Below are positions 19,038-60,557 of a stretch of 64,000 nt of DNA, one piece after another. The DNA comes from Pseudomonas sp. SST3. GTDB lineage: Bacteria; Pseudomonadota; Gammaproteobacteria; Pseudomonadales; Pseudomonadaceae. The notes under the pieces are model-generated. The model had not been told where the DNA came from. It searched no databases and saw only the letters and a list, made by a program, of their open reading frames with translations. The stretch lies in the NCBI RefSeq assembly GCF_003325755.1, contig NZ_QORI02000001.1:385947-449946 (forward strand). The letters are read 5' to 3'. The position numbers and the translations under genes are program-made. How positions within the stretch are numbered: position 1 is the first letter of the stretch; each line of letters opens with the position of its first letter.

Positions 19038-19369
19038 GGCAGTCTCCTTCGAGCCGGCGCGCGGCGCCGGGAAATGGACAAGGCCGTCTGGCCGGTAGAT
19101 AGCGGACGAGCCGCACTGTGCATCCCTCGACATCCGTAGAACAGGAAGCGACCACCGGGTTCCAGGCGTGGAGCGATGCGTTTGAAATCTCAAACACATG
19201 CTAGGGCCGGCTACCGATTCCAGGCAACACCATGTTCAAAAAAACTAACGCTTCATAGGCTTGCCTGATAAGCGTAGGCCGCGGCGGCGCTCGAATGCGC
19301 TTTGCGCACCCCAGCCGCCGAAGCGCCATGGACGATCGCCGGCGAGATGCGTATGATTGCGCCCGCGCC

Positions 19370-19446
19370 GCACCAGTAGCTCAGCTGGATAGAGTACTGC
19401 CCTCCGAAGGCAGGGGTCGTGGGTTCGAATCCCGCCTGGTGCGCCA
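19370..19446 (+). tRNA. tRNA-Arg(CCG)
   Basis: A 77-base cloverleaf with 7-bp acceptor stem GCACCAG / CTGGTGC, discriminator G and encoded CCA. The D-loop region is AGCTCAGCTGGAT, the anticodon stem-loop CTGCC-CTCCGAA-GGCAG gives anticodon CCG (reads CGG), and the T-arm is GGTTCGAATCC. The preceding 332 bases (19038-19369) hold the gabD and tRNA promoters and nothing else I can support. A horizontally acquired restriction-modification island starts about 170 bases after its 3' end, so it is a plausible integration site. Confidence 0.97.
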
Positions 19447-19517
19447 TATAAATCAGCACGTTACGCCTAATTATCTGTTTTCAACCAGGACGGTGACAGC
19501 AGGGCGACAACACTTGC

Positions 19518-19562
19518 TAAGCAAAGCCCCCCCTTGAGTAATTAAGGGGGGCCTTTTGCTTA
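19518..19562. terminator. Strong hairpin terminator after tRNA-Arg
   Basis: A long stem, TAAGCAAAG-CCCCCCTT paired with AAGGGGGG-CCTTTTGCTTA around a GAGTAATT loop. It lies about 70 bases past the tRNA and ends with a T-rich arm, matching a tRNA transcript terminator. It also insulates the island methyltransferase genes from read-through. Confidence 0.75.
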
Positions 19563-19592
19563 GAGTAGCCTCGGGAACGCGCACAATTGAGA

Positions 19593-19639
19593 ACAGGGAA
19601 CCTGTCCGTCAGCTAAAAGATGTGTTATATAAGACATCT
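19593..19639 (+). promoter_or_regulatory. Two palindromes at the methyltransferase start (candidate autoregulatory operators)
   Basis: Two dyads lie directly before the first methyltransferase. ACAGG-GAA-CCTGT (19593-19605) is perfect. A 22-base palindrome with arms AGATGT and ACATCT around GTTATATAAG (19618-19639) is symmetric at 20 of 22 positions. The second ends one base before ATG 19641, contains a -10-like TTATAT and leaves no room for a normal ribosome binding site. The encoded protein has an N-terminal helix-turn-helix, so self-repression at this site is an obvious hypothesis. Confidence 0.5.
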
Positions 19640-19640
19640 T

Positions 19641-21161
19641 ATGAAATCATCCGCCATTCAAAAATTGCGCCTTCTACTGGGCGAAACCCAAGCCCAATTC
19701 GGAGCACGATTCCAAGTGAGCCAGATCACGGTTAGTTATTGGGAAACCGGTCGCTCTATGCCTGCGGGACGGCGGCTGAACGAGGTTACCGCTTTGGCGT
19801 CAACCGCCCTACCCGCCAAGCCAAAATCGACGCCCTTTCGCCCCATTCAGTACCTTGGAAGCAAGCAGCGCCTAGCCGAAACGATCGTTAATGTTCTCGA
19901 AGAGATATCTCCGAAACAAACACGGGTTGGGGATTTGTTCGCGGGAAGTGGGGTAGTAAGTGCATTAGCAGGAGCCGAGCGGCCCGTAACAGCAGTCGAT
20001 ATACAAACCTACTCGAAGATTCTTTCCACGGCCGCCCTGCTTGAACAGGCAGAAAAATTCGCGCATATGACTGGCGCCGAATTCAAAGAACGATTTGCTA
20101 GCGCATCCGACCTCCTTGAAGAAGCCTTGACCCCTCTACTTGCCTTTGAGCGCGAAGCTGAGGCCGAGGCTATCAAAGGCAATCCAGAGTTGCTGGTCCA
20201 AATTATTGAGTTTGGGTCAATCGCTGTATACGAGCAGCGCCCGTTAACAGGCATGCCCGCCACCCTTGGAAAGCTCATAAAAAATGCGATAAGTGCACTA
20301 GCCAACATTCGCGCCTCATCAGCTGAGATTACTGCTACACGTTATTTTGGCGGGCCCTATTTTTCTTATAGGCAAGCAATTGCCTTAGACGCAATCTACA
20401 TCGCGACACACTCGGATTCCGGCGGCTCGCAGAACATTGCCGCATTAGCAGCCATCATCAGTACAGCCAGCGTGATAGTCAATACAGTAGGGAAGCAGTT
20501 CGCCCAGCCGATGAAACTGAAGAAAGCGGACGGCCGAATCCCACCACTCCTGCTCCAAAGGGCCTTACGGGACCGCAGTATTGATACCTTGGAAGTGTTT
20601 CAAGAGTGGGCAACTCGTTGGCAAACACATGCTCTGAGCGGCAATTTCGATCATGATATCGTGCAGGGTGATGTAGTCGACTTTGTCGTTAACGATCAAT
20701 CCTGCGGAGCCTTTTACGCCGATCCGCCCTACACAATTGATCATTACTCGAGGTTCTACCACGTACTGGAAACCCTCTCTCGTCGAGACTCACCTCGTTT
20801 AGACGAGATGAAAAAAAAGGGAGAGGTTTCAGTAATGCGCGGCATTTATCGTCATGGCCGCTATCAATCCCCGTTTTGCGTTCCCTCAAAAGCGCAAGCG
20901 GTGTTCGAGCAGCTGTTCGCTGCAGCTGGACAAAAAGCTGTGCCACTAGTGATGTCATATTCACCATTTGATGAAGAAGAGAGCCATCGCCCACGGCTCC
21001 TTACATTGGATGCGCTCATCTCGACGGCGGAGCGTCATTTTCGGCAGGTGTCGGTTCAAGAGATAGACGAACACAGCCACAGGAAACTGAACGCAAAAGC
21101 AGCCAACATGAGCGTCCGCAGTGATGCGGAGCGACTTATTGTTTGCGAAGTGACCAACTAA
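19641..21161 (+). CDS. HTH-fused D12-class DNA adenine methyltransferase
   Basis: About 506 residues from ATG 19641. An XRE-type helix-turn-helix occupies residues 5-55 (ETQAQFGARFQVSQITVSYWE). Next comes a D12-class N6-adenine methyltransferase: YLGSK near 71-75, AdoMet motif I FAGSGVV (100-106) and catalytic DPPY (361-364). It would methylate adenine in a specific DNA site, protecting it from the island nuclease. The N-terminal HTH is reminiscent of methyltransferases that repress their own genes. Base use is more AT-rich than the flanking chromosome. The stop overlaps the start of the second methyltransferase by one base (TAATG). ATG 19620 is an alternative start but lies inside the palindrome. 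Confidence 0.85.
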   Translation: MKSSAIQKLRLLLGETQAQFGARFQVSQITVSYWETGRSMPAGRRLNEVTALASTALPAKPKSTPFRPIQYLGSKQRLAETIVNVLEEISPKQTRVGDLFAGSGVVSALAGAERPVTAVDIQTYSKILSTAALLEQAEKFAHMTGAEFKERFASASDLLEEALTPLLAFEREAEAEAIKGNPELLVQIIEFGSIAVYEQRPLTGMPATLGKLIKNAISALANIRASSAEITATRYFGGPYFSYRQAIALDAIYIATHSDSGGSQNIAALAAIISTASVIVNTVGKQFAQPMKLKKADGRIPPLLLQRALRDRSIDTLEVFQEWATRWQTHALSGNFDHDIVQGDVVDFVVNDQSCGAFYADPPYTIDHYSRFYHVLETLSRRDSPRLDEMKKKGEVSVMRGIYRHGRYQSPFCVPSKAQAVFEQLFAAAGQKAVPLVMSYSPFDEEESHRPRLLTLDALISTAERHFRQVSVQEIDEHSHRKLNAKAANMSVRSDAERLIVCEVTN

Positions 21162-22546
21162 TGGAAAAATACCTCGGCAACAAATCTTCTCTACTACCGC
21201 TAATTGATCGATTCTTTGAGGACCGGATTCCCGGCGCGACGCAACTTTCGGATGTGTTCGCAGGGACAAATAACGTTTCTCGATACTTCCGCTCACGGGG
21301 ATGGGCAACGGCAGCCTGTGACGCGAATCGCTTCAGCTATGTGCTCGCGCAAGCATATCTCTGCACCAACGCCATACCCATGTTTCAAAGCGTTCGCACC
21401 GCCAACAAAGATGCCTTCCGGCTGACTAGATTACAGAGTGAATTAAGTCGTTCGATTGCGAAGTTCGGTTCGCTATACCTTCCAAATCATTCTGCAGACC
21501 AGGTTTTCCAGGATCTAAAACACCTAGCAAATGTGCTGGCAAACCTGCAGAACATAGGGGAGAACAACACCAAACCCGGTGTAATCAGCGAATGCTTCAC
21601 GCAATGGGGTTCACGGGCCGCGTATGCCAGTCGCCGCGGAAGCGAAGGCTTCAGAAACTACTTTTCTAAGGAAAACGCGCTCTTTCTCGATGGGGTGCTA
21701 TCCACACTTCGCGCATGGTGGCGGGAAGCACGCCTCACCCGGAATGAACTATTTCTACTCCTCACCAGTGTGATCGAAGAGGTCACCATCACCGCTAACG
21801 TCAATGGTACGTTCCATGACTTCAATCGTGATCGCTTGTGGCCCAATGCCAACCAGGCATTCCTGCTGCGGCTGCCGCTAGTATCTTGCTCAAGCCCAGT
21901 AGCAGAAGTGGCAAATGCCAACGCTGTTGACGCCGCCTCTGCCTTTGCCAAGCACGATATTTGCTATCTCGATCCCCCCTACAATTTCCGCCAATACAGC
22001 GCCTACTACCACCTCCTGAACTTCATCGCTGCGTATCCGTTCCTGGAGGACATCGAGTTATATGTCGCTGGCCTAACGCATGTCCGGGGCCAACACCCAG
22101 AGGACGACTTCACCAGCGATTTCTGCTTCAAGACTCGTTTTATCGATAGTCTCCGAAAACTAATCGAATCTACCGACGCAGCGCACGTCGTATTGAGTTA
22201 TTACGGCGGACGAAATCATTGGAACCACTGGGCATCGGTCGAGGAACCGACCGACCAAGGGCTTCGTGAGCTCAAAACCCTGTTTGAGGACACAGGCCTA
22301 TTCTCACGATGCGAGGTCGTTCCAGCGCTTGAGGTTAGGAAGAACTACCAAAGCCGAGTGGGCGAGCAAAAAGAACTAGTTAACGAATACCTATTCCACG
22401 GCGTACGACGCGCACAATCAGGCTCTCAGCTAAGGCCTCCCGCACCATTAGCCGCCAATGTCCGATGGGGGCTGATCGATGAATTCTGTCACACGGCCCC
22501 GCTGAGACAGGATGAAATCGATCAGGTCGCACGTACTGCTGGATGA
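21161..22546 (+). CDS. Second D12-class DNA adenine methyltransferase
   Basis: About 461 residues. It opens with MEKYLGNKS, the D12-class signature, then has AdoMet motif I FAGTNNV (33-39) and DPPY (271-274); the sequence between is diverged from its neighbour and carries its own target-recognition region. ATG 21161 is chosen because it couples to the upstream stop as TAATG; ATG 21143 is the alternative. Two different adenine methyltransferases in one operon usually mean an asymmetric recognition site with one enzyme per strand, as in type IIS systems. The last 99 bases overlap the convergent nuclease gene tail to tail. Confidence 0.85.
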   Translation: MEKYLGNKSSLLPLIDRFFEDRIPGATQLSDVFAGTNNVSRYFRSRGWATAACDANRFSYVLAQAYLCTNAIPMFQSVRTANKDAFRLTRLQSELSRSIAKFGSLYLPNHSADQVFQDLKHLANVLANLQNIGENNTKPGVISECFTQWGSRAAYASRRGSEGFRNYFSKENALFLDGVLSTLRAWWREARLTRNELFLLLTSVIEEVTITANVNGTFHDFNRDRLWPNANQAFLLRLPLVSCSSPVAEVANANAVDAASAFAKHDICYLDPPYNFRQYSAYYHLLNFIAAYPFLEDIELYVAGLTHVRGQHPEDDFTSDFCFKTRFIDSLRKLIESTDAAHVVLSYYGGRNHWNHWASVEEPTDQGLRELKTLFEDTGLFSRCEVVPALEVRKNYQSRVGEQKELVNEYLFHGVRRAQSGSQLRPPAPLAANVRWGLIDEFCHTAPLRQDEIDQVARTAG

Positions 22547-23848
22547 GATTGTCGGGTAACTAGAAAAAAGATGAGTCGGCTCAACCCCCCAAGCTTCAAT
22601 CTTAGGAAATTGGCGATGGGCCCCTTCAATAGTCGAATAACCAAGGAACGTGGGCTGATCTGCGCCGGGGAAAGGCACGAGAAAAACAGATAGCACGCTT
22701 GCCTCTGGAGTCCGTAGGGAATCTATATAGTAGAGCTGCTTTACGATATCCGGCCCACCAGGACGAGCAATTGGGAACCTGTAGTAATACTTTGCGTCGA
22801 CGATGAGACGCCAGGCACCTCGAACTACGACCATATCTGGAATCTGTTTGTGGTCGTATCGGGCCTTTTGCCCGGCAGGACTGCTACACCACCATACAGG
22901 TTGACCAATCGAAGAAATCGGATCGACTTGACTGTCGGCGCCGATGGCCATACGACAAGCATCTTCCCAGACCGAATAGAATGAGGTCGTACCGTAGATT
23001 TGTGGGTTTGACACCGCGCCGGCTAGCCTTGAACTTAGGAGCTCTCTGAGCAATTTTAGAAGCCGGAGAGCATCGGTTCGATAAACACCTCGCTGCTCAA
23101 GAGCCAAGAGGCGATCCAAGTACGCTCGCCGATCTTCCGGAATTGGCCACTGCGGCACAAGAAGTCCAGCCGCCTCCTCGGCGTGCTCGACAACAGCGGG
23201 TGTGACCAATTCGTAGCGCTCTTGCAAGCGGCGAAGTATCCCCACCTGAAGCGCACTTATTTCGTTGAGTACACCCTCCCTCCGCTCGGCTATTACAGAT
23301 GGATAGATTGCGGCCCCCTGAATAAGAACCGGAAAGCACTTGGCGATTGTCCTGGCCCAATGTGGGCGCCCTTGATCACTAACCCGAACCTGTTCCCTTC
23401 GATACAAACCGTGAGAATAGAACCACTCCTGGAGACTTAAAAGTGCGTCGTATTCCCTCAGAACCTCACTATTCCCATATTCAGGATCCAGCTGCTTGTC
23501 GACCGTTGGCCGTCGAAATGCGCTGCGCTCAAAATAATTTCGAAGGATGCGAATAGTCCCGGACAAATCGAAACCATTACCACCACCAAATTTTGGACAT
23601 GCGAATAACAGAAAATTTGGGAAAACAACGATACCCACAAAAGCCAGAACCAGCCGACCTCCATCGGTTGGTCGCAAGATTCGCGCGCTTATCAAGTAAT
23701 CAAGACAGGAGTTTTCCGACTCCAGCTTGGCAGACCACTCGCTCCACGTTAGCGAATCACCCTCAACGAGATTAATAACACTCATTTCAAATCTGACTTT
23801 CAGCTTCTTCGGCGGCGCTAGTAGATGCACCCGCATCAGATAAATCAT
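22448..23848 (-). CDS. LlaJI/McrC-like restriction endonuclease subunit
   Basis: Up to 466 residues; ATG codons at 23836 and 23785 are alternative starts and no strong ribosome binding site decides. A PD-(D/E)XK nuclease core is visible near the C-terminus: P337-D338, then D351-A-K353 on the following strand (RLIVDAKYY). The segments LREYDALLSLQEWFYSHGLYRREQ and FYSVWEDAC resemble the LlaJI nuclease and McrC-like families, which work with a McrB-type motor. It lies 33 bases downstream of the McrB-like gene, same strand, so the two form one restriction operon opposed to the methyltransferase operon. Predicted role: DNA cleavage subunit. Family call is from motif recognition, not a search. Confidence 0.7.
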   Translation of the reverse strand: MIYLMRVHLLAPPKKLKVRFEMSVINLVEGDSLTWSEWSAKLESENSCLDYLISARILRPTDGGRLVLAFVGIVVFPNFLLFACPKFGGGNGFDLSGTIRILRNYFERSAFRRPTVDKQLDPEYGNSEVLREYDALLSLQEWFYSHGLYRREQVRVSDQGRPHWARTIAKCFPVLIQGAAIYPSVIAERREGVLNEISALQVGILRRLQERYELVTPAVVEHAEEAAGLLVPQWPIPEDRRAYLDRLLALEQRGVYRTDALRLLKLLRELLSSRLAGAVSNPQIYGTTSFYSVWEDACRMAIGADSQVDPISSIGQPVWWCSSPAGQKARYDHKQIPDMVVVRGAWRLIVDAKYYYRFPIARPGGPDIVKQLYYIDSLRTPEASVLSVFLVPFPGADQPTFLGYSTIEGAHRQFPKIEAWGVEPTHLFSSYPTISSSSTCDLIDFILSQRGRVTEFIDQPPSDIGG

Positions 23849-23881
23849 TCGTTTGATTTATGATCTCAGGCATTTTTAACT

Positions 23882-25612
23882 TTAGCGGCGCACCAACGCC
23901 ACCAGCCCAGATCGCTGGGACTGCGAGAAGCTTTTTGCTAGGAAGAGAGACTCTTGTCGGAATCTAAGGACATCGTCCCACAGGTATAAAAACAACTTTT
24001 CGAGTACAGCATCTGGACTCGCAAGTTGTTTTTCCGTCAGAAAATAAGGGCCGATTAACTTATCTTCATGAATTCCCAAGCCGATGAGAAACTCGTTGAT
24101 AGCGGCACGGAAGACATCCCAGTCGTAGTCGCGACCACCATAACGAACCACCGAAATGTTCGCTGGGTACAAGCAAGGCTCGGTGTACCCCTTGTAGACA
24201 TAGCTCCAGCGGCGGCGAAACGCCGTATCCAACGGAAAAACTCCTTGGTCAGCACTGTTCATAGTCGCCCACAAATAGAGATTCGCTGGCAGCCTTATTG
24301 TGGCTATTTCAAGTTGATACGATGCGAAGAACGCTCGTTGTTCGGGGGTTGCTTCGATCTCGTAACGACTAGCACCCGACTCATCTCGATCTAACAACTG
24401 CAGCACATCACCCAGAATAGCAGCGGCGTTTCCTCGATTGATCTCTTCGATCAGCACCACGACAGTCTCATTCGGGCAGCGAAGCGCGCGCAATAAACCC
24501 CGCATCAGAGGACCGGGCACATATCGATAGTCAATAAATGGCTTGCCTCGACTTCCCGGCGCTCCGTCAGCTTCCTGTAGAGCGTTCAACTCGTCAATTT
24601 GTTCATATACAGGCTGAGGCTTGAAGGCGCCGACAAAATCGAAAAAAGACGACTCAGGATGAAACTGCGTCCTGATCACATGATCTGCAGCTTGCGTCAA
24701 GCGATCCAAGTAATAGCTTTTTCCCGACCCAGGACAGCCGGTTACGATAAGTTGATGAGGGTGCTGAAGCGAGGCGAGGCTAGGCGACTTTGGAATCAGA
24801 GTTGAGGAATTCTCTCCTCCTGAGCGCAGCGTCAGTTGGCGGTCTAATCGAGGTAGCGTCTGCCGTAAAACCAGCCTTAGGCGTTTGTATGCATTCAGAA
24901 ACCCTCTGATTCTATTTCTGACGTCTATCTGGATCTGACTAGCAGCATCCTTGTATTTCGAAGCGGCGACCTCGATGGGCGCTACTGGCTGCTGCTTATC
25001 GGTAACCTGCACTTTAGCGAATGCACCTTCGAACTCCTGTCGCTCTTCGGCATTTAGCCTAAAATAGCGTCCGATTTCCCAGCCGTTCGAATTAATCTGG
25101 AACAAAAGTAGAAGTTTACTGCTATCTGAAAGCACCTTGTCGATTTCGCCTTCCGGCACGTAGTCGAAAAAAGTCTGTGCGCCATACCAAGCCTCCTTAA
25201 AAGGATCGCTCACAGGGAAACCACCAGCGAGCCGGCTAGCTAATTCACTAACTACTTCATATTCGGCTTCATCACCACCAGTACCCTGCCAAAAAGCTGG
25301 AGCATCTGCAGGCGTCAGCTGATGCTTAAGATAGGCGTCTGCGAGGGAAGTGATCGCTGGATTTTCTGCCGAGCCGTCAACCAGTCCTTGGTTGTGCAGC
25401 GAGTTGAAGTATCGACTCCTCGTGACGGCGTTATCAGAGAGGACACCGTTGTCACGAATACCACGCAGGCTATTGACGATCTGTTGCGTGCTTTTAAGCT
25501 CAGAGCTGTAAAGAGAGAGTGGCTGTAATTTCGGGGTATTCTTGCGCGTCAAAGATAGTTTGAAATCCAACACCTTCGTCAGAGCAAGCTGTTCTACATC
25601 TGTAAGCGGCAT
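23882..25612 (-). CDS. McrB-like AAA+ GTPase restriction subunit
   Basis: A 576-residue protein. The N-terminal 280 residues are probably a specificity or DNA-recognition region with no motif I recognise. The AAA+ domain has Walker A GCPGSGKS (292-299), Walker B LIEE (389-390 the acidic pair) followed by INRGNAAAILGDV, and MNSAD (451-455) at the position of the McrB NTAD GTPase signature. McrB-family motors hydrolyse GTP, translocate DNA and activate a McrC-type nuclease, here the downstream gene. AAGGAG lies upstream of the ATG. Type IV McrBC cuts modified DNA; association with two cognate methyltransferases points instead to a LlaJI-like type II arrangement that cuts unmodified sites. Confidence 0.8.
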   Translation of the reverse strand: MPLTDVEQLALTKVLDFKLSLTRKNTPKLQPLSLYSSELKSTQQIVNSLRGIRDNGVLSDNAVTRSRYFNSLHNQGLVDGSAENPAITSLADAYLKHQLTPADAPAFWQGTGGDEAEYEVVSELASRLAGGFPVSDPFKEAWYGAQTFFDYVPEGEIDKVLSDSSKLLLLFQINSNGWEIGRYFRLNAEERQEFEGAFAKVQVTDKQQPVAPIEVAASKYKDAASQIQIDVRNRIRGFLNAYKRLRLVLRQTLPRLDRQLTLRSGGENSSTLIPKSPSLASLQHPHQLIVTGCPGSGKSYYLDRLTQAADHVIRTQFHPESSFFDFVGAFKPQPVYEQIDELNALQEADGAPGSRGKPFIDYRYVPGPLMRGLLRALRCPNETVVVLIEEINRGNAAAILGDVLQLLDRDESGASRYEIEATPEQRAFFASYQLEIATIRLPANLYLWATMNSADQGVFPLDTAFRRRWSYVYKGYTEPCLYPANISVVRYGGRDYDWDVFRAAINEFLIGLGIHEDKLIGPYFLTEKQLASPDAVLEKLFLYLWDDVLRFRQESLFLAKSFSQSQRSGLVALVRR

Positions 25613-25751
25613 CCCCCCAAACTCCTTGGTTAGTCCTTCCTGTGATCGATATTAACGCGCTTATGCCCGCAACGACCCTATCGCGGCACCTTGCACGACC
25701 CAACGAACATTGGCAATAGACATAGCACCGCCCCAGGAATGAACCGATCGG

Positions 25752-25917
25752 TGGACTTGCCCCGACCAAACCGGACACTAACTCCCCGTTAAATTGATGC
25801 TGCTGCCAAGGGCCTAAATTCCCTCGGCGAGCGGTATTTCAAGGCGCTGTGCGGATGCTGCTCGTTGTAATGCTCAAAGGCGATCGTCAGGTTGCGCAAG
25901 GCTGTCTCTCGGTTTGA
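25752..25917 (-). mobile_element. IS3-family insertion sequence remnant (3' end of transposase)
   Basis: Codons 25917 down to the stop at 25789 encode 42 residues including [19 protein letters not shown], the C-terminal signature of IS3/IS2-group OrfB transposases. About 26 bases past the stop, TGGACTTGCCCC (25752-25763) resembles an IS2-group terminal inverted repeat, marking the element's end. Everything upstream in the transposase is gone, and the broken edge joins directly to a truncated regulator gene. It marks the right border of the restriction island. Confidence 0.75.
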
Positions 25918-25951
25918 TTAACTCGTCAGACGACTAGGCAGCCTGGGCTCC

Positions 25952-27580
25952 ATGGTCATCCTGGCGTTCGATACCTATGAGGTTTTCCGGCTTCTCGATG
26001 CCTGGCTGCGGCAGGTGTTCGTACCGATGTTGTCGGGCAATGTACGGGGGCTTTTCTTCGGTCGGGAAAGCTCACTCGACAGCTGGTACGCCTCGCCAGG
26101 ATGGGGGCAACTGCTGTGCTCTGTCCCGCTGACGCCATTGAATGCGCCCGATACCAACGAGCTCCTGCTGAGTCTTGGCGTCACGGGCGAGAAGGCAGCT
26201 CTCATCGCTCGAGCCACCCATGGCCACCCATTGGCGCTGAAGCTCGCCGCCGCCGGTCTTCGTGAGGCGCAGCCCGGTTATCTCCCTACGGATGCGTCGG
26301 TTCAGCATGCGCTGGATGAGCTGACGCGCCTGTTTCTCGAGGATGTCAGCGATCCGGTCACCCGGCGTGTACTGGAGGGCGCCTCCGTCACCCGACGGAC
26401 CACGGTTTCGTTATTGCGAAGCATGTTTCCGGAGCTCGCGCCTCAGGATGCTTACGAGCGCCTGCGCAAGCTGCCGTTTGCCGGCTGCGTCAGTGATGGG
26501 CTGGTCATCCACGACGCCGTTCGAGATGCCATCGCCAGTTCGCTGCATGCCAGCGACCCCAGCCGTCACCTCGCGTATCGGCAGGCCGCCTGGCGACAAC
26601 TGGTCACCGAGGCTGAATCTGCAAGCAGTGGAGATCTCTGGCGCTATACCGCCGACATGCTTTACCTGATCGAGAATCCGGTCGTGCGCGAAGCGTTTTT
26701 TCCGCGGCATGCCACCTCGCTCAGCGTGGAAGCGGCGCAACCAGTCGATAACGGTGCATTAACAGCGATTATTCGTGCCCACGAGGGCGGCCTGGCCGCC
26801 CAGACGCTACTGCAATGGTGGCGCCGCCTGCCGCAAAGCTTTTCGATCGTGCGCAACGGGGGCGGCGGGATAACCGGGTTGTACTGCAGACTGCGCTCGG
26901 ATCTGGTCGAACCTGCCTGGCTCCGGGACGATCCCGTAACCGCCCAATGGCACAGCCATCTGACCAACAGCCCGATGAACAAGGGTGACATTGCGCTTTT
27001 CTGTCGACGCTGGCTGAGCCTCGATGAGGCTGATTCGCCGGGCGAAGTACAAGCGGCGGTGTGGCTTGACCTCAAGCGCGCCTACATGGAGCTGCGACCA
27101 CGGCTGCGGCGGGTTTATCTCACCGTGCGCGACCTTGCAGCTTATGCCTCGGTTGCCCAGCGGCTGGGTTTCGAGGTGCTGACAGACCGTGAGGTGGAGC
27201 TTGATGGTCATCGATACCACAGCGCGGTGCTCGACTTCGGCCCCAGCTCGGTCGACGGCTGGCTGTCGGAACTCGCTGCCGCAGAGCTTGGTATGCAACG
27301 CACTTGCGACCTTCTCGATGTCGAGGCACGGGAATTGGCGCTCGACGAACGCCGCGTTGCGCTGACACCGCTGGAGTTCGGCGTCATGCATCACCTCGTG
27401 ACGCGCGAGGGTAAGGTGGTGTCGCGCAGTGAGCTGCTGCACGATGTCTGGGACACCCAATACGAAGGCGGCAGCAACGTCGTGGATGCCGTGGTGCATA
27501 CCTTGCGCCGCAAGCTTGGCACGCAGTCTGGCCGAATCGAGACGGTATCCGGGGTGGGCTACCGATTGAAATCTCGCTGA
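25952..27580 (+). pseudogene. 5'-truncated ATPase with C-terminal winged-helix regulator domain
   Basis: The open frame starts after TAA 25919-25921 at the IS remnant border. Its first residues, VILAFDTYE, look like a Walker B strand of a STAND/NB-ARC-type ATPase, so the P-loop and everything before it are missing. A helical region and a GNAT-like segment (RRVYLTVRD..YASVAQRLGFEVL) follow. The last 100 residues are an OmpR/PhoB-type winged helix (LTPLEFGVMHHLVTREGKVVSRSELLHDVW). The intact parent would be a large ATP-dependent transcription regulator of more than 700 residues. Whether the remaining 542 codons are still translated is unknown. Confidence 0.75.
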
Positions 27581-54983: not shown

Positions 54984-55473
54984 AATGAAGTCCAAGGTGA
55001 TGAATGTCCGTGGGCCTCGGCGAACCCCGAAAATCAGTTTATACCTTTCTAGGCGCGCAAGTTGACTCTCGCTATCGACCGTGACCGAAGCTGTAACCTT
55101 GGCCCCAACCTAAGCCTGGCCGCGCCCATGAACGAGGTAAGGAACGGGCGGGTTAGAAGACAACCGGGGTGGTCAGGCAGAAGCGTGCGTTGTAAAAGGA
55201 GCCTCTCATTACACTTCACTTGTTCGGCGCAGCGGAGGTGGCTAGTTCCATCAGTTCTCGGCCAAGCGTCTTGCGACATCCGGCTGGCTGTCTCAATTAA
55301 GCCCCCTCGCTGAATCACATAACGCGGAGGGGCACGCTAATGGCGAGCTGGTGCGTGGTCGACACTGGTTCTGAGCAGAGCAATACTACATACCCGTGCA
55401 CCTCTCAATGCTGAGCGCAGTGTGGATCAAGTGGAGCCAACGTCTTTTTATGTCGCATTTGGAGGAGTCCGCT
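54984..55473. other. Intergenic region with a hairpin
   Basis: A stretch of 490 bases between divergent genes. The only structure I see is GCCCCCTCGC paired imperfectly with GCGGAGGGGC at about 55301-55332. GGAGGAG at 55461-55467 belongs to the next gene. No recognisable gene or RNA. Confidence 0.45.
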
Positions 55474-55947
55474 ATGGTTGCTTCCGGCACGCGTGTCGAT
55501 AGGGTGGTGCTCGCCGTCCGCAAGCCTACGGAGTACCTCCTCCGTAGGGACCCTGCACTGCTCAGCCCGGTTATGGTCTATAAACTGACTGCCGAGGGCT
55601 TCGAGATAAAAGATGTGCAAGACATGATTTCGATTTCCGATCTCTACTCGGCGGAGAAGATCCTGAGCCGCATCGTTGGCAAATCCACTAGGACGATCCA
55701 ACGACAGAGCAATGGTAATCAAACTGTGCGTCTCAGTTCCCTGCAGAGCGCCGTGGCCTTTCAATACGCGACGGTTCTGGAGCGCGCGACCAAAGTGTTC
55801 GGTACTCAAAAGCTAGCCGAAAATTGGCTGGGTCGGCCCTGCGGATATTTCGATGGAGAAATACCATTAGACGTTGTCGGCAATCCTGTGGGGTTTCAAG
55901 TAGTAAACGACTACCTAGAGCGCATTGAGTACGGGGTTTATCAGTAG
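55474..55947 (+). CDS. ParS/Xre-type antitoxin (MbcA/ParS toxin-binding domain), no RES toxin beside it
   Basis: A 157-residue protein. A helix-turn-helix core at about 40-90 (SISDLYSAEKILSRIVGKSTRTIQRQ) is followed by the toxin-binding domain (RATKVFGTQKLAENWLGRPCGYFDGEIPLDVV). In ParST/XreRES systems this antitoxin neutralises a RES-domain toxin that degrades NAD+ or ADP-ribosylates a target. The start ATG 55474 has GGAGGAG six bases before it; the upstream 26 codons are dropped. No RES-like gene follows or precedes it. It may be an orphan or an anti-toxin acting on another locus. Confidence 0.8.
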   Translation: MVASGTRVDRVVLAVRKPTEYLLRRDPALLSPVMVYKLTAEGFEIKDVQDMISISDLYSAEKILSRIVGKSTRTIQRQSNGNQTVRLSSLQSAVAFQYATVLERATKVFGTQKLAENWLGRPCGYFDGEIPLDVVGNPVGFQVVNDYLERIEYGVYQ

Positions 55948-56059: not shown

Positions 56060-56734
56060 ATGTCTGTCGCAAAAGCTATCTCGAACAGAGTGAAGCACAT
56101 GCGAAAAGGGCGGCCTTTTTCGCGCAAGGTTTTCGTGCAGGTAGGTTCTAGAGCTGCGGTTGATAAGGCGCTTACAAGCCTAGTCAAAGCAGGTCTTCTG
56201 GAGCGTGTAGCCCGCGGCATATATATGCGCCCAAAGATGAGCGGATACACCGGTCGCAGAGTGCGCCCCAATCTGCTGGACATTATGATGGTTCGTGCCA
56301 AGGCAAACGGCGAGACAATCCAGATACACGGAGCGGAGGCTGTTAGGAGATTGGGCCTCAGCACCCAAATGCAGGTCGTGCCGACCTACTACACCAGCGG
56401 TACGACCCGCGAGATAAAAGTTGGCAACGCGGTGGTTCGCCTCCAGCATGTCTCCAGCGCGCACCTCCAGCATGCCGGAACGAAGCTAGGAGCGGTTCTC
56501 ATCGCTCTCTATTACTTAGGGAAAAAGGGATTGTCCGCCCAGGTAGTTTCCAAGATCACCGATACTATGAGCACAGAAGACTTGCATAAGCTCAAAGCTT
56601 GCAGAATGCCGGTATGGATGCGGTCGGCATTGCTGGTCGGGGTTAAAGCGACGCCGCCCCATGCTTCGGCCGCCCCGAAAGCGATCAACCTCAATGCAAA
56701 CATTTGCCATCTTCAGAAATCCGTTGAGCGTTAG
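56060..56734 (+). CDS. DUF6088 / AbiEi-like antitoxin, no toxin beside it
   Basis: A 224-residue protein with an N-terminal winged-helix (FSRKVFVQVGSRAAVDKALTSLVKAGLLERVARGIY) and an AbiEi-like domain after it (ETIQIHGAEAVRRLGLSTQMQVVPTYYTSG). AbiEi-like proteins repress and counter a nucleotidyltransferase toxin (AbiEii), which normally follows. Here an IS110 remnant follows instead, so the toxin was lost or never present. The 112-base gap to the upstream antitoxin gene makes co-transcription possible. Confidence 0.75.
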   Translation: MSVAKAISNRVKHMRKGRPFSRKVFVQVGSRAAVDKALTSLVKAGLLERVARGIYMRPKMSGYTGRRVRPNLLDIMMVRAKANGETIQIHGAEAVRRLGLSTQMQVVPTYYTSGTTREIKVGNAVVRLQHVSSAHLQHAGTKLGAVLIALYYLGKKGLSAQVVSKITDTMSTEDLHKLKACRMPVWMRSALLVGVKATPPHASAAPKAINLNANICHLQKSVER

Positions 56735-58515: not shown

Positions 58516-59592
58516 ATGAGTAAGTTTGAATTCGAAGCGCTCACCATTGAGCGGATGATAGCGCATACGATTTTCCCTCGAACAAAAGATGGACTATTGG
58601 TTGATCCTCAACTGTCCAATGACTTAATTCCGCTGGATGTCGACTCTAGGGATCTGGTGCAAATTAGAGTGACGGATGCCTTAGGCAGCGCATCTCATGG
58701 GATAGAGGTTAATGTCGAAAAGTCAGATGACGGTTCATTCATGCAAAAAGCCGCTGCGATTATCAGAACGAATGATTTTGATTTTGTAGCTAAATCCAAA
58801 GTAATTGCGAGTGACCTAGCTAACGTCCAAACTAATCCCAAATGGCCTGGTGGGGTATTGATCGTATTAACTGGCAAGGTCGGCAAAAATCAAAGCCCGT
58901 ATGCTGCAGTTATTAAAGCTGAAACTGATAAAGGCTTTAATATTGAAGAGGTAAACGGCTCCGTCAGCTTGACACTTATTAAGAAAATGCTCTTGTCTCA
59001 AACACAGCGCCTGTACAAGATTGGGATCGTTGTTGAGATCTCTTATCAGGCTCCGGTGAAAAACCTTTATTCGCCGGAGAATTACAGATATTTTTTGTTT
59101 GATCACCTGCTCACCAGTACCGAAACAAAATCCGCAGCTGCGTATTTCTATAATGCTTTTTTGGGCATGAATATCCTAGGCTCTTCTAAGTATCAGACTC
59201 GGAAGTTTTATGAGGCGACCAAGACATTCATTAACGCACTTCCAATAAGCACTTCAGAGCGCGGTACTTTATTGGAGGCGCTACGCTCTGATCTGCGCAG
59301 CAATAAAGGGACTATGTCGATTGCTACATTTGCGGAAGAACACCTCCCTATGGAGCAAAGAGAAGAGTACAAGAAAACGATGTCCGCAACCGGGCTGCCT
59401 GACACGGCGATGATAAAAGATCTTGCTTACATTAAAGCGAAACTACGTCGGCCTCGTAGAATTGATTTCAGTACGGGTATCAAAATTCAGGTTCCAGCAG
59501 ATGTTGACTTTGGCGAGCATGTCAAAGTGGAACATCAAGCCGGAGGCTATACACAAGTTCGAATAAAGGGCGTAGTCGAAGGGCAAGAGTAA
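58516..59592 (+). CDS. Nucleoid-associated NdpA/YejK-like (NA37) protein
   Basis: A 358-residue soluble protein, AT-rich compared with the chromosome. Segments YAAVIKAETDKGFNIEEVNG, LYKIGIVVEI, FLGMNI, a helical ALRSDLRSN-KGTMSIATFAEEHLPMEQREEY, and the C-terminal RRIDFSTGIKIQVPADVDF..VRIKG match the layout of the 37-kDa nucleoid-associated family. Family members bind DNA or nucleoid; plasmid and accessory versions have unknown jobs. The gene ends TAATG with the next one, so the two are co-translated. Assignment is by pattern, without a search; an unrelated antitoxin or sensor with the same layout cannot be excluded. Confidence 0.62.
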   Translation: MSKFEFEALTIERMIAHTIFPRTKDGLLVDPQLSNDLIPLDVDSRDLVQIRVTDALGSASHGIEVNVEKSDDGSFMQKAAAIIRTNDFDFVAKSKVIASDLANVQTNPKWPGGVLIVLTGKVGKNQSPYAAVIKAETDKGFNIEEVNGSVSLTLIKKMLLSQTQRLYKIGIVVEISYQAPVKNLYSPENYRYFLFDHLLTSTETKSAAAYFYNAFLGMNILGSSKYQTRKFYEATKTFINALPISTSERGTLLEALRSDLRSNKGTMSIATFAEEHLPMEQREEYKKTMSATGLPDTAMIKDLAYIKAKLRRPRRIDFSTGIKIQVPADVDFGEHVKVEHQAGGYTQVRIKGVVEGQE

Positions 59593-60557
59593 TGGAACTC
59601 GAGGAATTTAGAGATCGACTGACAGATGCCCAGCCTAGCTTGCGAGGATGGGGGGACTTTGTACGTGAAACCGTTAAAGCGATCTCTAAAGCCGAAAGCA
59701 TAACTCTTCAAATACTGAGCAGTAGAGTCAAAGAAATAGACTCTGCGATTGGCAAGCTGTCGAGAAAGCCTTACAAGAATCCAATGTCCGATATGACAGA
59801 CCTCGTGGGTGTTCGAGCTGTTTGCCTGCTTAGTCCGGACGTTGAAAAGCTGTGTTCTTCGTTGGTATCACATCCAGTATGGAAAATCCAGAAATCTCGG
59901 GATACCTCTAAGGAGTATGAGCAAGCTCCAGAAAAATTTGGTTACCAATCCCATCATTTTGAAGTGCGTGCTAAAGTTGACCTTAATGCTGATGGGGTTT
60001 TCATCCCCGCAGATACGTGTTGTGAGCTTCAAGTAAGAACCTTGATGCAGCACGCTTATGCGGAGGTAGTACATGATAGTATTTACAAAAGCGCTTGGGG
60101 AGCTCCTAGTAGAGCGATCAGGTTTGTTTCAAGTAGTGCGGCCCTGATAGAGACGGCGGATCATCTTTTTTGTGAAACCATGAATGTTTTAGAATTGGAG
60201 ACTAAGTCCCGTGGCGAGCTGCTAGAGCAGCTTACGGGGCTTTACGATTCGAAAATAAACATCAAGGGGTTCAAAGATCAAAAATTCAACATGATGGTTT
60301 TGGAAGAGCTTAAAGATCTCATTGATGATGAGACCGTTCCAAAGCTTTCAGCGTTTCTAGATGAGCGGAATTACATTCCTGGCAGGATAAGTGATAGGGT
60401 CAGCTCTGACGCATTCTGGTCTCAGCCAGTTTCAATGCTGGCATATTTTCTAGTGCATGATCATTCATATCGGGTAAAAGATGCGTGGCCATTCTCTGAG
60501 TCTGAGGACGCGTTAGCTATGGTTTACAGTGATCTGGGGAAAAAGTTTGCAAACTAA
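59592..60557 (+). CDS. RelA/SpoT-domain protein (toxSAS-like candidate)
   Basis: A 321-residue protein. The (p)ppGpp-synthetase fold spans about 20-170: DLVGVR with D70 and R75 (metal and nucleotide contacts), G-loop Tyr118 in FGYQSHHF, and ELQVRT with E145 and Q147. There is no HD hydrolase domain. The C-terminal 150 residues are helical and without a motif I know. Small alarmone synthetases of this kind include growth-arrest toxins (toxSAS, CapRel-type) that pyrophosphorylate tRNA or make (pp)pApp. It is coupled to the upstream NA37-like gene by TAATG. Housekeeping alarmone synthesis is possible but the mobile-looking context argues otherwise. Confidence 0.78.
   Translation: MELEEFRDRLTDAQPSLRGWGDFVRETVKAISKAESITLQILSSRVKEIDSAIGKLSRKPYKNPMSDMTDLVGVRAVCLLSPDVEKLCSSLVSHPVWKIQKSRDTSKEYEQAPEKFGYQSHHFEVRAKVDLNADGVFIPADTCCELQVRTLMQHAYAEVVHDSIYKSAWGAPSRAIRFVSSSAALIETADHLFCETMNVLELETKSRGELLEQLTGLYDSKINIKGFKDQKFNMMVLEELKDLIDDETVPKLSAFLDERNYIPGRISDRVSSDAFWSQPVSMLAYFLVHDHSYRVKDAWPFSESEDALAMVYSDLGKKFAN

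What the first reader, a model, noticed from the sequence alone, without database searches (positions are those of the whole stretch)
19593..25612. Candidate LlaJI-like restriction-modification island with a McrBC-type motor and two adenine methyltransferases
Seen: two overlapping D12-class methyltransferase genes (DPPY and FAGxxxV motifs) face a convergent pair encoding a PD-(D/E)XK nuclease (PD338, D351-A-K353) and a McrB-like AAA+ protein (Walker A 292-299, MNSAD 451-455). Known: LlaJI pairs a McrB-like GTPase and a nuclease with two methyltransferases, but its methyltransferases are m5C enzymes. Inference: this locus is an N6-adenine version of that architecture, which would be type II-like restriction by a translocating GTPase. 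I am not aware of a characterised member with this methyltransferase class.
Basis: partly seen in the sequence, partly recalled or inferred. Interest (0 to 1): 0.78.

Follow-up and report, generated by a model that had tools for sequence, protein, structure and literature searches.

The report
Adenine-methylating LlaJI-type restriction-modification island
Four genes beside a tRNA gene look like an anti-phage restriction system in which two enzymes tag the host's own DNA on adenine and a motor-nuclease pair cuts untagged DNA; it is a distinct, probably self-regulated version of a known but little-studied kind.

Summary
The nuclease is RE_LlaJI (PF09563, 79.9 bits), its partner a McrB-like AAA+ protein, and both methyltransferases are D12-class (N6-adenine). 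Best reading: a McrBC-like Type II restriction-modification system of the LlaI/BsuMI/LlaJI group. The same four-gene layout occurs in five other loci, and NCBI names its parts on an E. coli plasmid. New here: (1) D12-pair systems form one well-supported clade; (2) six methyltransferase arrangements lie beside LlaJI-type nucleases; (3) the first methyltransferase carries an HTH domain, and a palindrome AGATGT-N10-ACATCT overlapping a -10-like box lies at its start in 5 of 6 loci, suggesting autoregulation; (4) the motor's N-terminal domain is predicted helical with a winged helix, not a B3 barrel. A reading-frame shift near the end of the window's motor gene leaves its activity in this host uncertain. 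New variant of a known kind.

The parts
19370..19446 (+). tRNA-Arg (CCG) at the left edge of the low-G+C island
   Evidence: ARAGORN; G+C profile
19618..19639 (+). operator-like palindrome AGATGT-N10-ACATCT with a -10-like TATAAG in the spacer, ending 1 nt before the likely M1 start
19620..21161 (+). M1: D12 N6-adenine-class DNA methyltransferase with an N-terminal HTH domain; likely start 19641
   Evidence: Pfam; start inferred from the palindrome and relatives
21161..22546 (+). M2: D12 N6-adenine-class DNA methyltransferase, overlaps M1 by one base
22448..22546 (.). tail-to-tail overlap of M2 and R2 (99 bp); an overlap of 24-126 bp is present in 6 of 6 D12-pair loci
22448..23848 (-). R2: LlaJI-family PD-(D/E)XK nuclease; likely start 23785
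   Evidence: Pfam; alignments; model; fold searches
23882..25612 (-). R1: McrB-like AAA+ protein with an N-terminal helical/winged-helix domain; its frame departs from that of relatives near 23.92 kb, so about 45 C-terminal residues are lost
25752..25911 (.). remnant of an IS3-family insertion sequence at the right edge
   Evidence: 89% over 160 bases to IS3 family transposase genes on Pseudomonas plasmids
25922..27580 (+). ATPase/winged-helix regulator gene lacking its first 99 codons

Best explanation
A McrBC-like Type II restriction-modification system of the LlaI/BsuMI/LlaJI group with N6-adenine protection. M1 and M2 each methylate adenine in one strand of a (probably asymmetric) site. 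R1 recognises the unmodified site through its N-terminal winged-helix/helical domain, forms an AAA+ ring that recruits R2, and R2 cuts foreign DNA with its PD-(D/E)XK centre. M1's HTH domain binds the palindrome over its own promoter and represses the M1-M2 operon, probably made as a leaderless mRNA. Shown here: gene content, family membership, motifs, shared layout, conservation of the palindrome, predicted folds. Inferred: adenine specificity from the D12 class, asymmetric target from two methyltransferases, cutting of unmodified DNA and ring assembly from relatives, autorepression from HTH plus palindrome.
Against: R1's frame departs from relatives for about its last 45 residues, so restriction may be impaired in this host unless it is a sequencing error. 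No activity, methylation-motif or GTPase data exist here; LlaJI itself showed no GTPase or cleavage in vitro (PMC1459862). A D12 match does not by itself prove adenine specificity. The plasmid locus L007 lacks the full palindrome: it has two ACATCT half-sites, one of them in a one-mismatch palindrome with an 8-nt spacer. With one mismatch and spacers of 8-12 the motif also turns up at 6 unrelated places in the loci held. R1's N-terminal fold was matched to no solved structure.
Confidence: 0.85

Rival explanations
1. Decayed system: the methyltransferases work but restriction is dead in this host because the end of R1 is frame-shifted, leaving an orphan modification pair. (A statement about this host; it can hold together with the best explanation of the family.)
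For: Of 5 relatives compared, 3 continue in another frame of the window (P0177 44 residues at 48%, E 9.5e-6; P0178 39 at 51%, E 1.3e-5; P0202 49 at 33%, E 0.002); P0187 weakly (E 0.29), P0181 not. Right edge scarred by an IS3 remnant and a truncated neighbour.
Against: R2, M1, M2 and the R1 AAA+ core are open; the lost tail is variable among the 11 aligned proteins apart from a short block; the shift could be an assembly error.
Confidence: 0.3
2. Modification-dependent (Type IV-like) McrBC-type nuclease that happens to sit beside methyltransferases.
For: McrB-like motor and McrC-like nuclease fold.
Against: R2's only Pfam match is RE_LlaJI; D12 methyltransferases adjoin in all 6 loci of the R1 clade; LlaI, BsuMI and LlaJI are described as cutting unmethylated DNA (passage of PMC2614495).
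Confidence: 0.05
3. The palindrome is shared ancestry or a chance repeat, and M1 does not regulate itself.
For: The loci are related; a perfect 6+10+6 repeat arose in 303 of 20000 mononucleotide shuffles of 60-nt stretches around it; the flank comparison is ungapped and anchored on the palindrome, which lowers flank conservation; the loose motif also occurs elsewhere.
Against: Arms invariant in 5 of 5 at the same place, 0-3 nt before the ATG in 4 of 5 (19 nt in L001); half-sites upstream of M1 in the distant plasmid copy.
Confidence: 0.1

Closest known systems
LlaI (Lactococcus, pTR2030)
   Same: D12 methylase, McrB-like AAA protein and LlaJI-family nuclease; phage resistance reported (passage)
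   Different: Restriction needs three genes in an operon with the methylase gene (reference title seen); one methylase protein; AAA protein 337 aa, without the N-terminal domain; in plasmid L008 the methylase gene is in pieces. Here two methyltransferase genes, two restriction genes, convergent
LlaJI (Lactococcus, pNP40)
   Same: Two methyltransferases, McrB-like R1 with an extra N-terminal part, RE_LlaJI nuclease R2
   Different: Methyltransferases annotated as C5-cytosine and all four genes co-oriented; target GACGC (PMC1459862)
D12-pair locus of E. coli plasmid pTE_T100_3 (NZ_MW574942.1)
   Same: Same four genes in the same convergent order; R1 36% identical over 97%, M2 42% over 91%
   Different: Plasmid-borne; full palindrome absent; no experiment on it found
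BsuMI YdiS-YdjA (integrative model 9a5m)
   Same: Closest PDB entry for both R1 and R2
   Different: The YdiS chain has 343 residues and aligns to R1 258-576, so it lacks R1's N-terminal domain; three restriction ORFs (PMC1459862); cytosine methyltransferases (recalled)
PcaI (PMC8989522)
   Same: Methyltransferase plus McrBC-like pair restricting unmethylated DNA (passages)
   Different: Dcm-like cytosine methyltransferase, CCNGG
M.SsoII (HTH-type regulatory methyltransferase)
   Same: N-terminal region of the methyltransferase regulates transcription of its system (start of abstract of PMC3978073 in the listing)
   Different: C5-cytosine class, different restriction enzyme type

Membership tests
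McrBC-like Type II R-M (LlaI/BsuMI/LlaJI group) | RE_LlaJI (PF09563) nuclease with PD-(D/E)XK centre | tested here: met
   79.9 bits, cut-off 23.6; D338, D351, K353 invariant in 54 of 54 aligned
McrBC-like Type II R-M (LlaI/BsuMI/LlaJI group) | adjacent McrB-like AAA+ protein | tested here: met
   (the NCBIfam McrB equivalog model matches far below its cut-off, 38 of 637 bits)
McrBC-like Type II R-M (LlaI/BsuMI/LlaJI group) | methyltransferase genes next to the restriction genes | tested here: met
   two D12 genes, same in 5 other loci
McrBC-like Type II R-M (LlaI/BsuMI/LlaJI group) | cuts unmodified DNA, blocked by own methylation | not testable with these tools
   needs phage plating or a cleavage assay
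LlaJI proper | two C5-cytosine methyltransferases | tested here: not met
   both are PF02086, no PF00145 match; pNP40 M1.LlaJI is PF00145, both annotated as cytosine methyltransferases
LlaJI proper | recognition of GACGC | not testable with these tools
   no methylome
LlaI proper | one methylase protein and three restriction ORFs | tested here: not met
   two separate D12 genes and two restriction genes
B3-type LlaJI.R1 (H. pylori) | N-terminal B3 (beta-barrel) DNA-binding domain | tested here: not met
   in the predicted model residues 1-252 are helices plus two 3-residue strands, block pLDDT 91-98; a prediction, not a structure; that B3 is a beta barrel is recalled
McrBC Type IV | stand-alone, no cognate methyltransferase | tested here: not met
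   two methyltransferase genes adjoin
McrBC Type IV | methylation-dependent cutting and GTP-driven translocation | not testable with these tools
   motifs present, no assay

The most novel reading that the evidence does not exclude
A regulatory and specificity subtype of McrBC-like Type II restriction: a winged-helix-guided motor blocked by N6-methyladenine, whose HTH-methyltransferase reads a palindrome over its own leaderless promoter. Because the palindrome arms (AGATGT/ACATCT) hold adenines in a GATG/CATC context like the target of the D12 enzyme M.FokI (GGATG, recalled), the operator may itself be a methylation target, coupling expression to methylation state, with the tail-to-tail M2/R2 overlap seen in all six loci as a second brake.
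Probability: 0.1. Interest if true: 0.62.

Novelty: new variant of a known kind. Interest (0 to 1): 0.42.

Why it matters
LlaJI-type systems join a McrBC-like motor to ordinary self/non-self methylation, but how they cut has stayed open: purified LlaJI gave no activity (PMC1459862). A Gram-negative clade with an expected 6mA mark, readable by long-read sequencing, would be a convenient experimental entry point. The survey (23 loci, biased towards the window's kin) suggests that the methyltransferase class is exchangeable around one motor-nuclease pair, so the motor may only need a mark that blocks its site-reading domain.

Tried and rejected
Whole genome of the window: not held; the host was not identified. 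A scan of viral contigs with the nuclease alignment confirmed no relative among 26 candidate stretches. No match to the plasmid locus L007 in the E. coli genomes by megablast. Control of R1-R2 by M1 was dropped: in the 250 nt upstream of the R1 frames of the 6 loci no palindrome was found; one AGATGT half-site lies about 30 nt before R1 of L007, and one in the window lies inside the R1 coding sequence. With one mismatch and spacers of 8-12 the motif has 14 matches in the loci held: 7 at or near M1 starts (L003 and L040 being one contig, and L007 included) and 7 elsewhere, at 6 distinct sites (L005 and L015 show the same one; the others are in L011, L012 twice, L021, L041), so only the exact form is distinctive. 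Four C5-type loci with HTH-fused methyltransferases gave no comparable palindrome: L010 and L039 none, L033 and L034 short unrelated repeats. That fused and paired D12 methyltransferases were acquired independently is not established: holding them as one clade is not rejected (AU p 0.068, 0.083, 0.113). The fourth genome with the pattern (G822) has none of the system's proteins in the 3 kb held. Integration at the tRNA: the four genes fill the stretch, so there is no room for an integrase gene, and no copy of the tRNA end is among the repeats of 19300-26200; mode of entry unknown. PADLOC had no model for R2.

Literature: the primary LlaI paper and the H. pylori LlaJI.R1 paper are not held; their content comes from passages or reference titles in other papers, or is marked recalled. 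Statements that something was not found in print rest, in an open-licence library without preprints. REBASE could not be searched. Seen of each paper: PMC1459862 abstract, passages and sections 5 and 11; passages only of PMC8989522, PMC12707154, PMC3990576, PMC7680126, PMC3874153, PMC11779793, PMC2614495, PMC4190342, PMC5417603, PMC12006667; listing only of PMC3978073.
Full report
Observation. The four genes lie in a low-G+C stretch (51-53% from 20 to 26 kb against roughly 56-65% in 1-19 and 26-31 kb) between a tRNA-Arg gene (19370-19446) and a scar made of an IS3-family remnant (25752-25911) and a regulator gene lacking the first 99 codons of a 99%-identical intact protein. Pfam shows two D12 methyltransferases, a RE_LlaJI nuclease and an AAA_5 protein. 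The AAA protein is McrB-like by sequence (far below that model's cut-off) and by fold.

Relatives and layout. One scan of named genome contigs confirmed 6 loci; four of them carry the same unit (Janthinobacterium, Herbaspirillum, a Burkholderiales MAG, Cupriavidus), as does E. coli plasmid pTE_T100_3. With the window that makes 6 D12-pair loci, each with R1-R2 facing M2-M1 and with M2 and R2 overlapping tail to tail by 24-126 bp. The plasmid's annotation already names the parts 'LlaJI family restriction endonuclease', 'AAA family ATPase' and 'DNA adenine methylase'.

Survey of methyltransferase class. Cognate pairing is inferred from adjacency. The set is biased towards the window's kin: among the 10 loci drawn by family searches of 398, 249 and 343 genomes other than the search centres, 2 have the D12 pair (G002 and G697, both also found). 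Genomes with a match were 3 of 398, 3 of 249 and 7 of 343, centres included; only the centre itself in the class search (1 of 369) and in three genus searches (1 of 34, 1 of 60, 1 of 40). So the distribution is sporadic, as expected of a mobile system.

Tree. In the R1 tree of 23 rows the 6 D12-pair loci form one clade (100/99), within which the E. coli plasmid branches first. LlaI's motor falls elsewhere, but on a long branch, and a common clade of all D12 systems is not rejected (p 0.068).

Control element. M1 carries an N-terminal HTH in 6 of 6 loci (below the Pfam cut-off in L001 and L002). At its start lies AGATGTG.T....A..ACATCT. The arms are identical in 5 of 5 non-plasmid loci; the DNA around them is far less conserved (mean majority fraction 0.53 upstream and 0.55 downstream against 1.0 for the arms, in an ungapped alignment anchored on the palindrome). 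A TATAAT-like box sits in the spacer (exact in L002 and L004, near in the window and L001, weak in L003; my reading), and the candidate ATG follows after 0, 0, 1, 3 and 19 nt, which suggests a leaderless mRNA and repression by M1 (inference). The exact form AGATGT-N10-ACATCT occurs 6 times in 466,589 bases of 42 sequences (41 loci, some overlapping, and the window), each at an M1 start; L003 and L040 are the same contig. In 343 genomes the refined pattern occurs in 4, three of them D12-pair loci from which it was drawn; the reversed control occurs in none. Finding those three is by construction; the rarity elsewhere is the result. Against this: with one mismatch and spacers of 8-12 the motif also occurs at 6 unrelated sites in the loci held, and plasmid copy L007 has two ACATCT half-sites, one in a one-mismatch palindrome with an 8-nt spacer, instead of the full element. 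No palindrome lies upstream of R1; one half-site does in L007.

Integrity. In the window R1's frame leaves that of its relatives near 23.92 kb. Of 5 relatives compared, P0177 (44 residues at 48%, E 9.5e-6), P0178 (39 at 51%, E 1.3e-5) and P0202 (49 at 33%, E 0.002) continue in another frame, P0187 weakly (E 0.29) and P0181 not; about 45 C-terminal residues are lost. This tail is variable in the alignment of 11 proteins apart from a short W..G.G.PL block. Whether it is a mutation or an assembly error cannot be told here.

Prior knowledge. LlaI, BsuMI and LlaJI were grouped in 2008 as McrBC-related Type II systems that cut unmethylated DNA and carry a pair of Type IIS methyltransferases (PMC2614495, passage). 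LlaI is said to confer phage resistance (PMC5417603, passage). Its methylase is called a 'type II A methylase' in a reference title seen in PMC4190342, a phage-borne protein annotated 'LlaI methylase' matches D12 with 178 bits, and pieces related to it precede the LlaI-type restriction genes in L008. The adenine version of the architecture is therefore known. The separate-gene, convergent, HTH-carrying clade described here was not met in what I saw.

Verdict. A real restriction-modification island, ordinary in principle, with a distinct and testable regulatory and specificity arrangement. New variant of a known kind.

Noticed in passing
window 58516-60557 +: A 37-kD nucleoid-associated (NA37) protein gene overlaps by one base a RelA/SpoT-domain gene (PADLOC candidate PDC-S33, E 2e-19) in a 45-46% G+C stretch: a possible two-gene defence or toxin-antitoxin module.
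   Followed up: partly
window 56060-56734 +: AbiEi-like antitoxin (PADLOC PDLC02226, E 4e-54) with no ORF over 112 aa between it and 58516 that could be an intact AbiEii partner.
   Followed up: partly
window 55396-55947 +: Protein with an Xre/MbcA/ParS antitoxin C-terminal domain; no toxin partner was looked for beyond the ORF list.
   Followed up: no
window 25922-27580 +: ATPase/winged-helix regulator without its first 99 codons next to an IS3 remnant; a 99%-identical intact protein (P0056, 651 aa) exists.
   Followed up: yes
L036 3275-9252, L037 3525-7072 and L038 5977-11116: LlaJI-type loci lying beside an Eco57I-type plus a C5 methyltransferase, an N6_N4 methyltransferase alone, and a C5 plus N6_N4 pair: arrangements beyond those of LlaI and LlaJI.
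   Followed up: partly
L010, L033, L034 and L039: C5 methyltransferases of other LlaJI-type loci also carry N-terminal HTH domains, some below the Pfam cut-off, so HTH fusion recurs across methyltransferase classes.
   Followed up: partly
L021 3438: A one-mismatch form of the palindrome (8-nt spacer) lies between an HTH regulator gene and the fused D12 methylase gene of the Lactobacillus amylovorus plasmid; it may be chance.
   Followed up: no
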